DNA of 64,000 nt from positions 434,001 to 498,000 of the forward strand of contig NW_012236510.1 of assembly GCF_000787575.1 (NCBI RefSeq), written 5' to 3'. Origin of the DNA: Acytostelium subglobosum LB1. Lineage: Eukaryota > Evosea > Eumycetozoa > Acytosteliales > Acytosteliaceae. Below, piece by piece: positions 54,091-57,980 of this stretch. Positions within the stretch are counted from its first letter, which is position 1. Each line of letters opens with the position of its first letter. A program made the translations under genes and the position numbers. The notes under the pieces are model-generated. The model was not told the origin of the DNA and made no database searches. It saw only the letters and a program-made list of their open reading frames with translations.

Positions 54091-55388
54091 TCACTTTGTT
54101 TGTATTGTCTCAAAGTATTGTAGACGATTGAGAAGGCTTGCAGATATAGTTCGTCGAGGGCCAGGGGGCGAGAGTGAGGATGGACGGGATGATTCCATTG
54201 GTGGCGTGATTGAGCAACAAAGCTCACCAGAGTCGCCTCGCCACAGTTGGCGTGGTGGTGAGCTGGCTGATCCCGAGCCATCGCTGCCCGTCTCCATGTG
54301 AATATGTACAGATGTTGTTGTTGTGGAGCATTGTTCACCAGTCTCGGATGGTGACTCCATTAAGTTGTTGAGTGAATGTACATTGACTTGTGGGAGTGGA
54401 CACCAGTATTGGCCGTGATACTGGACGTCTCCCACTCCCATCGTGTTGCCCATGTTCTCGAGGTAGAATGACCGCATGATCTCGACGTCCAGGGTCTTTA
54501 GTTGGTACTCCTTGGCATTGGCAACACTCCTACAATAAAGATGATCGTACAATATCTTTCGGAACTGTTGTTTGGTCAACAGGCTATGTGGCGAAACAGA
54601 GAAATACAGGTCCTCACGTCCATTATCACACAACAATATTGGGCGGCCATCAGTCGTGAATCGATCGAAACCAAAGTAGAACGATACCTCTTCCACCTCA
54701 ACTTGGTAGTATTGCTTTATCAGTTCCTTCTTGGTTGGTGCTATAATATTTGATTGATTTAGTGAGTGGGATTCCTGATGATTACTTCGAAAGAATACAT
54801 ACCTCTATTATATTTACAGTAATGTTCGGTCGTTAGTTGGATGATGGTCTCGGATGGATCTTGGATAATGGTGCCCAGGAGTACTACTTTCTTGGTGTTG
54901 TGCTTGGTCAACTCCATGATGGTCTCAAACGTGTTGAGTAGTTTATAATCATTGACTCTCATCAGTAATTGTTTGTAATCACCATAGAATATTATACGAA
55001 CGCCAGAGTTGAGGTAGGCCTCTAGTAACAGGGCATTGTTGAGTAGTTCACCTAAGCCGCGGAGGTATCCAATGAACTTGGGCAGGTACTCTGGACCGCG
55101 TTGTTCCAAGGTGTAGAACCACATTGGATAGATGATGGTGTGGATGCCCTGATCAAACATCATCAACAGGTGGTCCAATAACTTTCGGATGGCACTCTGG
55201 GAGTAGATGTCATAGTCGATGCGTACATTGTCGTCGTGTGGATTTGAGTTTGAATTTAGGCCATGCTCCATCAGGTAACTTCGTCTTGTTCCATCGAACG
55301 CATAGACCACGGACTTTTTGGATCCGGTCGACGATACCAATTTGGCCACAGACTGATCAGATTGTTCCAGAAATTGAGTAAGCTCCAT
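54091..55388 (-). CDS. Rv3378c-like diterpene transferase (cis-prenyltransferase-type fold)
   Basis: Exons 55388-54803 and 54740-54091 encode 411 aa. By recall, the first 290 residues align with the mycobacterial enzyme Rv3378c (tuberculosinyl transferase) and the Herpetosiphon kolavelool synthase group. The shared blocks are VVYAFDGTRR (Asp32 is the catalytic acid position), a helix ending FDQGIHTIIYP, EQRGPEYL, VRIIFYGDYKQ, APTKKELIKQYY, FYFGFDRFTTDGRP, DLYFSVSP, RKILYDHLYCR and TMGVGD. The join R/APTKK is in phase 1. The last 100 or so residues are Ser/Pro-rich and have no bacterial counterpart. It is expected to act on a bicyclic diterpenyl diphosphate; the substrate here is unknown. An intron and typical codon use show it is a resident gene. 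Confidence 0.8.
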
Positions 55389-57980
55389 GATGTTGATATT
55401 ATTGGATTGGAAAATGTTGGTTGAATAATTATTGATTTGTTGATTGAGTGATTGGTGGAATAATTATTGATTGTTTGAATGAATGATTGGATTTAAAGGA
55501 GTTAAAGTTGAATGTGGTTGATCAGAATAAACTGATTGATGGACAGTGAGTGACGGTGACAGTGACAGTTGGCTGATTGGATTATGTTATGTATATTTAG
55601 TTGTTGTTGGCGAATATTCAGATTGATGGTTGACTACTACTTATTTGGATGGTTGACTGATTGACTACGTGATCAAACAATCAATCAATCAAATGGCAAG
55701 TTGGCAATGAGTAATAATATGTTGGTAGGAGTATACACTTGGGAAAGTAAATTGATGGATGGATGGTGCTGCTTTCCAGAGTTGATTATGAGTGAATCTG
55801 CCACAACTACACACCTCACTCTCACTTGCTCTCTTTGGTCAACTCCTCACTCACCCTCAAGTTGCTACACTCACTGTCTATTCACTCTCTCTCACTCACA
55901 CTCTTTCTATCACCTAGGTGTCCCCGCCCACGATAATATTGCAGTGACTCTCAGTATCTCGAGGTGACCTGGCCAAACCTAACCCGACTGAATGACTAGG
56001 ACTATTATGAACTGACTAACTGAGACTGACTGTGGGTGGTACTGGATGGATGGATGATGACGATTAACTGAATAGGTTGTGTTGTGTTGTGTGTCTATGT
56101 GATGATGTGAGATGAGATTGATGGATTATGAGGGTGGACTGGATTGATGTAGTTGACAAATACAATTGTGTACTGGATTGTTAGTTTGATTGATTGATTG
56201 ATTGATGGAATGGCGGGCACGTACTATAATGTGATGGTAATGAATGGTGTTGTTGGTCGATGATGCAGTCAGTCAGTACACGGTATAATAATGTAAGATT
56301 GGAATTAAGAGATGCATAGCATTCATCCATCCATCCATCAGTCTACCATTGTCACCTTCCTTCTCCTTTCCACCCATCATCATCTTTCAATCAATCCAAC
56401 GATCATCATTGTTTTTGCCAATGTTGCCAACACATTGTAGCGATCATTCTTTCATTCTTTCCTTTCTTTCATTCATTCATTCACCTTGGCGGGCAATAAC
56501 AAAACAAACACTTTGGCAAAGGAAAGGAGGGGGTAGACGGTAAGAAGGGGAGGGGATGCGACCTTAGTCTGGTACATTCGCACTTGTGCTCCACAATCTG
56601 TATATTGAATGAACGACATCCACATCAATCAAAGTGCGAGATTTAACTTGTTGATTGGAGCACGGGTGATTGACGGAGGGAGGGGGAGGATGTGGCGCCG
56701 CGGCCAATGTCAGAGTGATTGTTTCCCCTGGTGTGGTGGTGTCAGCTGATGGGGTAGTGTGAGTGTGTGTGGTAGTGAATGAGTGATCACAAGTGATCAC
56801 CCCCCGTCATGGCATTGCGTGTCCACTTGCCACCTATCCCAAGGTGATCGCATCGATGCGATGGAATGGCATCGCGGTGCGCCTCACACTGCGCCTCTTT
56901 GCAATCTTGTATAACAACTATAAGCACACTACCCCCTTAGGACAGGGTTTTAAACTTGATGTTCTGTTAATCGTTAATGTAGTCTTGTGAGTTAAGTGTT
57001 GTGTGTGTTATCTGTGTTGGTTGTGGATTGTGGTAGTTGTTGAGATTGAGTTGCAATCATGTGATTGAGTGAATTAGACCTGTGTGCGTGTGTGTGAGAA
57101 TGATCAAAGTGATCAGAGCGTGGTTATTTGTTGTCCATATCAATGGAGTTGGCGGGCAACCTGTAATATGATGGATGCCCTGTCAGAACTCTTAGTTTTG
57201 TTTGACGACACGGTATTTATGATCGGGTGTATTTGATTGATTGTTTGATTGGTTGGTTGAATAAGCACCCGCAATATGGTTGGTAACAATTTTATTATTA
57301 TTATTATACACACCTTCCATCCAATCCAGTGGTGTTACCAATTGAGAACTGGGAATTATTAATATATAGGGTTGTTGTTGTCGATTCCCTTCATTACAAT
57401 GACCTGATATTGACTACCCTTATACCCTTATGGCCATACTCTTACCTTAACCCCCCCCCCNNNNNNNNNNNNNNNNNNNNNNNNNNNNNNNNNNNNNNNN
57501 NNNNNNNNNNNNNNNNNNNNNNNNNNNNNNNNNNNNNNNNNNNNNNNNNNNNNNNNNNNNCATCATCACCATCATCATTCATCAGATCCTCAAAGGTTGA
57601 TCTGAATATGAATCATACCAGATTCACACATTGAGGTGATTGGTGTGCATTGAGTAATCATACTTCAATGGAGATGGGGAAATAGTACCAACATCATTGT
57701 AATTTGGTTGTGGCATCAATGAGCTAGCTCATTGTACTTGGAATATTTAAAACTCGGATATCTGATCATGATGATTGTGATGACAATGATGATGATGAGT
57801 ATGATGTTGATGACGATGATCGAGTTATCCAGAGATAGTTCCGTGCAGGGTGATACCAATCTCGTCCAATCCATCTCAATGTATTCCAACACAATCCAAT
57901 GCAATCCAGCGAAGTCCAGCGCAACTCGTTGATCAGATTGATTGTGTACATGTACAACAGATTGATGATGTTGTTGTGTT
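55389..57980. other. Long gene-poor region with an assembly gap
   Basis: 2.6 kb of GATT, CATT and TCAC simple text, with no supported gene on either strand. A run of ten Cs ends in 100 Ns (57461-57560), an unclosed gap of nominal size. Three copies of TGGCGGGCA occur at 56211, 56487 and 57150. A degenerate CAATCCA repeat lies at 57862-57920. Genes on the missing sequence cannot be excluded. Confidence 0.55.

What the first reader, a model, noticed from the sequence alone, without database searches (positions are those of the whole stretch)
54091..55388. A eukaryotic Rv3378c-type diterpene transferase
Blocks DGTRR, YGDYK, APTKKE, FGFDRF, LYFSVSP and RKILYDHLY line up with the Mycobacterium tuberculosis enzyme that transfers a tuberculosinyl group, and with the Herpetosiphon kolavelool synthase. 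As far as I recall these enzymes are known from bacteria, and dictyostelid terpenes are described only for class I terpene synthases. The gene has an intron and a new C-terminal tail, so contamination is unlikely. It would imply an undescribed route to a diterpenoid, or a terpenyl-modified small molecule, in a social amoeba, possibly acquired by horizontal transfer from soil bacteria.
Basis: partly seen in the sequence, partly recalled or inferred. Interest (0 to 1): 0.9.

Follow-up and report, generated by a model that had tools for sequence, protein, structure and literature searches.

The report
Tuberculosis-type terpene enzyme in social amoebae
A social amoeba carries, as its own intron-containing gene shared with other social amoebae, a relative of the enzyme with which the tuberculosis bacterium attaches a terpene to adenosine, but without the partner cyclase that usually sits beside the bacterial gene, so its product is unknown and can be looked for directly.

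The parts
54803..55388 (-). Exon 1 of the Rv3378c-type gene (residues 1-195 and the first base of the next codon); holds the DGTRR diphosphate loop (D32, R35, R36), Y62 (= Rv3378c Tyr51), Y101 (= Tyr90) and YGDYK
   Evidence: splice; alignment to Rv3378c; conservation
54741..54802 (-). Intron, 62 nt, GT-AG, phase 1, directly before the PTKKE block; the second copy P0129 (C20) has an intron at the same position and phase
   Evidence: the spliced reading agrees with the public proteins P0001 (SAMD00019534_097420) and P0129
54091..54740 (-). Exon 2: PTKKE, FGFDRF, LYFSVSP, RKILYDHLY, then a low-confidence Ser/Pro/Thr-rich tail to the stop codon
   Evidence: tail pLDDT below 50 from P0001 residue 343 = residue 330
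54091..54147 (-). C-terminal end ISASLLNRLQYFETIQTK, resembling the ends of four dictyostelid relatives ([LY]SPxLLxR[MI]QPFL); absent from the partial NCBI protein model
   Evidence: window and P0002, P0003, P0004, P0006

Best explanation
The gene encodes a dictyostelid member of the Rv3378c-type (Z-prenyl-synthase fold) allylic-diphosphate synthases. Shown: family, predicted fold, retained diphosphate-loop residues, one dictyostelid clade, and no detected class II cyclase other than a triterpene cyclase. Inferred: R35/R36 hold a prenyl diphosphate with Mg2+, D32 and the two tyrosines help the diphosphate leave, and the allylic cation is captured by water (giving a tertiary allylic alcohol) or by a small nucleophile (giving a prenylated metabolite), without chain elongation by IPP. 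Because the usual class II partner is missing, the substrate is most likely an ordinary acyclic diphosphate (GPP, FPP or GGPP) made by the cell's own trans-prenyl synthases, rather than a bicyclic halimane or clerodane diphosphate.
Against: No activity, product or expression data. A class II cyclase too diverged for the SQHop models, or split by introns, could be missed; the bacterial cyclase protein and PF01397 found nothing, but no positive control rang for them. Several core positions differ from bacteria (W after DGTRR is S; the FD of bacteria is DG in TDGRP), so the chemistry may have shifted. One subclade lost the Arg pair, which shows that the family can leave this chemistry.
Confidence: 0.55

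Rival explanations
1. True diterpene transferase: it acts on a bicyclic diterpenyl diphosphate as in bacteria, the cyclase being an undetected diverged gene, or the substrate coming from food bacteria.
For: Most bacterial relatives keep a class II-type cyclase close by: 24 of 26 loci, 15 of 21 further loci with short flanks, 6 of 9 actinobacterial loci with short flanks. D32 matches Rv3378c Asp34, whereas most bacterial relatives have Asn there (55 of 57 rows; 8 of 9).
Against: No class II cyclase in the genome except the triterpene cyclase; no terpene gene among the 10 neighbouring open frames tested.
Confidence: 0.15
2. Small-molecule prenyltransferase: the cation is passed to an acceptor such as adenosine, an aromatic or another terpene, giving the prenylated or geranylated dictyostelid metabolites whose enzymes are unknown to me.
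For: Rv3378c itself transfers to adenosine and has a large product family (PMC11476799, passages). Dictyostelids make geranylated and prenylated compounds: firmibasiol from D. firmibasis (PMC7356884, passages), Pt-1 to Pt-5 and Ppc-1 (PMC6356392, passages). D. firmibasis carries P0019 and P0127.
Against: No evidence links this gene to those compounds; other prenyltransferase families were not searched for in the genome.
Confidence: 0.22
3. Ordinary cis-prenyltransferase or an NgBR-like accessory subunit of dolichol synthesis.
For: Same superfamily fold. The D. discoideum subclade without the Arg pair looks like a non-catalytic partner.
Against: No PF01255 match at E<=1. The genome has a separate canonical cis-prenyltransferase on C28. 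The profile hits no UPP or DHDD synthase up to E 10.
Confidence: 0.06
4. Bacterial contamination or very recent bacterial gene.
For: Outside dictyostelids every hit that carries an organism name is bacterial.
Against: Spliceosomal intron; 541-kb public contig; cullin, MutL homologue, Rieske and ribosomal S16 neighbours; second copy on another contig; relatives in eight further named dictyostelid species forming one clade.
Confidence: 0.01

Closest known systems
Rv3378c, tuberculosinyl adenosine transferase / (iso)tuberculosinol synthase of Mycobacterium tuberculosis
   Different: No class II partner found; insert before the Tyr51 position; S instead of W after DGTRR; long low-complexity C-terminal tail; intron; eukaryotic
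Kolavelool synthase of Herpetosiphon aurantiacus (HaKS)
   Same: The second hydrolysing enzyme of the cis-prenyltransferase family named in PMC8131916 (passage); accepts substrates of several lengths (PMC9440906, passages)
   Different: Converts bicyclic kolavenyl diphosphate from a diterpene gene cluster (paper title); its sequence was not compared by name here
Chloroflexota and Actinomycetota 'tuberculosinol synthase'-like proteins
   Same: About 28-38% identity to P0001 in alignment A4; same conserved positions except Asp32 (Asn in 55 of 57 rows)
   Different: Usually near a class II cyclase; compact, mostly about 302 aa
DDB_G0275279 of D. discoideum AX4
   Same: Same dictyostelid clade; Rv3378c chains its only PDB matches to E 10; I-TASSER match to 3wqm printed in 2021 (PMC8280847, passage)
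   Different: Belongs to the 7-row subclade without R35, R36 and Y62 counterparts, so probably not catalytic in the same way
Canonical cis-prenyltransferases (UPPS, DHDDS)
   Same: Superfamily fold; a related D-G-x-x-R loop (recalled)
   Different: No sequence match in profile search to E 10; Z lower by about 8
Dictyostelid class I terpene synthases (TPS)
   Same: Both belong to prenyl-diphosphate metabolism in dictyostelids (PMC6156593, PMC6524965, passages)
   Different: Another fold and family (recalled); PF19086 does not match this protein but hits other loci in the genome

Membership tests
Rv3378c-type synthase/transferase protein family | Best sequence relatives are Rv3378c and its bacterial homologues over the whole catalytic domain | tested here: met
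   only Rv3378c chains in PDB at E<=1 and as significant profile matches; the bacterial hits are in part named tuberculosinol synthase or tuberculosinyltransferase
Rv3378c-type synthase/transferase protein family | Rv3378c-like variant of the Z-prenyl-synthase fold | tested here: met
Rv3378c-type synthase/transferase protein family | [DN]GTRR loop plus the Tyr51 and Tyr90 positions | tested here: met
   D32, R35, R36 in 15 of 16 main-clade rows (1 gap), Y62 and Y101 in 16 of 16; not met in the 7-row D. discoideum-complex subclade (Arg pair 0 of 7, Y62 0 of 7, Y101 4 of 7)
Rv3378c-type synthase/transferase protein family | Converts an allylic diphosphate to an alcohol or transfers it to an acceptor | not testable with these tools
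   needs enzyme assay
Two-gene class II cyclase / Rv3378c-type diterpene pathway | Class II (DxDD-type) diterpene cyclase in the genome, usually adjacent | tested here: not met
   (one SQHop locus, a DCTAE triterpene cyclase); empty but without a positive control; neighbours
Canonical cis-prenyltransferase (UPPS/DHDDS) | PF01255 or UPPS chains as best match | tested here: not met
   no PF01255 at E<=1; none to E 10; canonical enzyme found separately on C28
Class I terpene synthase | Terpene_syn_C_2 domain | tested here: not met
   no such match at E<=1

The most novel reading that the evidence does not exclude
Dictyostelids make prenyl or terpenyl nucleosides (or an equivalent lysosomotropic prenyl conjugate) with this enzyme from plain FPP or GGPP, as a signal or to adjust phagosome pH. 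The mycobacterial factor that blocks lysosomes would then belong to a chemistry that phagocytic amoebae have used since before their radiation.
Probability: 0.1. Interest if true: 0.95.

Novelty: new variant of a known kind. Interest (0 to 1): 0.72.

Why it matters
A 2021 paper names only two hydrolysing enzymes of this kind, both bacterial (PMC8131916, passage), and a 2024 study reports that its initial search for orthologues of the mycobacterial genes outside mycobacteria failed (PMC11476799, section 12). Here the family appears as an ancestral gene of social amoebae, with two copies in A. subglobosum and a subclade in the D. discoideum complex that lost its Arg pair. It predicts an unknown prenyl-derived metabolite in organisms with good genetics, made without the class II partner, and it makes the question 'what does such an enzyme do in a phagocyte' directly testable. 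It may also explain why the family went unnoticed in the model strain: the one AX4 copy named in my searches is the degenerate one.

Tried and rejected
Ordinary UPP/dehydrodolichyl synthase: rejected. Contamination: rejected. A local terpene gene cluster: I tested 10 of the 26 open frames of 110 aa or more that one search lists between 44 kb and 64 kb; nine match household or unrelated families (one of them, ATG14, below its cut-off) and one matches none. The window left of 44 kb was not examined. A class II partner in the genome: not found; the last two had no positive control. Naming a bacterial donor: not possible; the dictyostelids lie on one side of a branch and the Chloroflexota and Actinomycetota rows on the other, and where the divergent Chloroflexota group joins is weak (SH-aLRT 70). 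Pfam and NCBIfam have no model for this protein at their cut-offs. Paper searches: (listings; most hits were not opened). 'Rv3378c'+'Dictyostelium' gave one paper with one occurrence of each word, not opened; 'Rv3378c'+'Chloroflexi' gave none; 'DDB_G0275279' gave PMC8280847. PMC7839719 and PMC11070974 were looked at in passages and added little. The original structure and enzymology papers were not held, so the roles of Asp34, Arg37, Arg38, Tyr51 and Tyr90 are from recall and from PDB titles (Y51F, Y90F). Whether AX4 also has an intact copy was not resolved: clusters P0009 and P0010 are named after another D. discoideum assembly and may hold further members. Trees use a selection of bacterial rows: 21 P rows plus the loci; 21 of 91 rows were dropped for and 31 of 100.

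Full report
What is there. On the minus strand of the window, 55388-54803 and 54740-54091 join across a 62-nt GT-AG intron (54802-54741, phase 1) to a 411-aa protein. The public copy is SAMD00019534_097420 of Acytostelium subglobosum LB1, marked partial: it begins upstream of the ATG and ends before the last residues seen here. The window lies in a 30.7-Mb genome of 56 contigs, at C34:434001-498000. Of 26 open frames of 110 aa or more between 44 and 64 kb I tested ten: one gave no match, and the rest are a cullin, MutL C-terminal and ATPase domains, a Rieske protein, ribosomal protein S16, a weak Vps38/Atg14 match, a family-10 glycosyltransferase, a Laminin_G_3 domain and TPR repeats. The gene is thus embedded in ordinary eukaryotic DNA, with no terpene cluster in that stretch; the left part of the window was not examined.

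Active site. By the alignment (counted by hand), D32, R35 and R36 take the places of Asp34, Arg37 and Arg38, and Y62 and Y101 those of Tyr51 and Tyr90, the residues mutated in the substrate-bound crystals (titles; roles recalled). Across 91 rows, the 16 main dictyostelid rows keep D32, R35 and R36 in 15 (one gap, H. album) and Y62 and Y101 in 16. The 57 main bacterial rows have Asn at the Asp position in 55 and the Arg pair in 56 (one gap). In 11 divergent Chloroflexota rows the Arg pair is kept in 11 and Asp is found in 2. The 7 rows of a D. discoideum-complex subclade have the Arg pair in 0, the Y62 tyrosine in 0, Y101 in 4 and Asp in 4. This subclade includes AX4 DDB_G0275279 (P0021). Whether these residues face the pocket was not measured.

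Relatives and history. Three protein searches gave 23 dictyostelid or dictyostelid-like proteins. The named ones are A. subglobosum (two: P0001, P0129), Heterostelium album, Tieghemostelium lacteum, Polysphondylium violaceum, D. purpureum, D. discoideum and a cf. discoideum, D. citrinum, D. firmibasis and D. dimigraforme. P0002, P0004 and P0005 (EukProt) and P0008 and P0128 (metagenome) have no species name and are called dictyostelid from their place in the tree. The 23 rows form one clade (SH-aLRT 100, 91 rows); 22 of them do so in a bootstrap tree of 70 rows, made after dropping 21 rows (100/100). With nine actinobacterial rows added and 31 of 100 rows dropped, 19 dictyostelid rows still form one clade (100). 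Acytostelium with Heterostelium, then Tieghemostelium, then Polysphondylium and Dictyostelium branch roughly in the order of the accepted groups (recalled), which points to one acquisition before the split of the sampled groups; some inner forks are weak, and one D. discoideum copy (P0009) sits with P. violaceum (82/27). The second A. subglobosum copy branches first and shares the intron position before PTK.

Bacterial setting. A scan of one genome per species found 26 loci: 24 Chloroflexota and 2 Rubrobacteraceae. 24 of 26 have a class II-type cyclase in the fetched flank: 21 downstream on the same strand and 3 on the opposite strand; the four examined with Pfam carry SQHop domains, one of them (L030) just under the cut-off. 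Of the other two loci, L021 ends at the end of the stored stretch and L026 has none in 8.2 kb. An exact DxDD is present in 15 of those 24 cyclases. In a sample of 400 genomes of the Chloroflexota phylum 23 have a match, some weak, and in 396 of the Rubrobacteraceae's phylum 11, one of them short. Among loci with only short flanks, 15 of 21 and 6 of 9 still show the cyclase. The usual Chloroflexota order, Rv3378c-like gene then cyclase, is that of Rv3378c-Rv3377c in mycobacteria (order recalled), and P0035 matches Rv3378c at 256 bits.

The missing partner. PF13243 and PF13249 find one locus in the A. subglobosum genome (C54), a 666-aa frame with the DCTAE motif of triterpene cyclases (motif recalled), most likely cycloartenol synthase. 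A bacterial class II protein and PF01397 find nothing, but these lacked a positive control. The genome has one canonical cis-prenyltransferase, about five trans-prenyl synthase loci and five Terpene_syn_C_2 matches, one of which overlaps a trans-prenyl synthase locus. Acyclic prenyl diphosphates should therefore be available; a source of bicyclic diterpenyl diphosphates was not found.

How it probably works. Shown: family, predicted fold, residues, one clade, absence of a detected class II partner. Inferred: binding of an acyclic prenyl diphosphate with Mg2+ by the Arg pair, ionisation helped by D32 and the tyrosines, and capture of the cation by water or a small nucleophile. Kolavelool synthase is described as promiscuous and turns over C16 diphosphates that did not come from a class II enzyme, so this is chemically reasonable. 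Rv3378c transfers to adenosine and has many downstream products, and dictyostelids make geranylated and prenylated compounds whose transferases I saw no report of in those passages. Acceptor transfer is therefore a serious alternative to water.

What was known. The I-TASSER note on DDB_G0275279 printed its structural match to 3wqm but listed decaprenyl-transferase terms (PMC8280847, passage read). The 2024 study of the mycobacterial locus reports that its initial efforts to find orthologues outside mycobacteria failed (section read). The two dictyostelid terpene papers that I read in passages concern the TPS enzymes. I found no paper naming a dictyostelid Rv3378c-type enzyme in searches; these cover an open-licence library only, and most listed papers were not opened.

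Verdict. The name 'diterpene transferase' goes beyond the evidence, because the partner that makes the diterpenyl substrate was not found. I rate it a new variant of a known kind.

Noticed in passing
L036 (own genome C20:157687-158756, minus strand): A second, three-exon copy (P0129, 367 aa, about 43-47% identical) with the DGTRR loop and an intron at the same place before PTK, ending in a basic tail.
   Followed up: partly
P0012, P0021 (DDB_G0275279), P0022, P0123, P0125, P0126, P0127: A D. discoideum-complex subclade has lost the Arg pair and the Tyr51 counterpart but stays conserved elsewhere: a likely pseudoenzyme or re-purposed protein.
   Followed up: partly
L007-L032, L059-L088: Chloroflexota and some Actinomycetota carry Rv3378c-like genes, usually near class II cyclases, a possible lead to the open question of where the mycobacterial terpene-nucleoside genes come from.
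   Followed up: partly
window 54091-54147 and C-termini of P0002, P0003, P0004, P0006: After a variable Ser-rich linker four relatives end in [LY]SPxLLxR[MI]QPFL (window: SASLLNRLQYF), a short conserved end of unknown use, not seen in the other dictyostelid proteins.
   Followed up: partly
P0124 (Heterostelium album PPL_07989): Public model of 787 aa, titled F-box, seems to join this gene to another protein and to lack the stretch with the DGTRR loop; probably a gene-model error.
   Followed up: no
L009 8367-14077: The Chloroflexota gene row also holds an ICMT-type methyltransferase and a sensor kinase beside the pair, suggesting an O-methylated and regulated product.
   Followed up: no
window 57461-57560: A run of 100 N, probably an assembly gap.
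   Followed up: no
   Followed up: no
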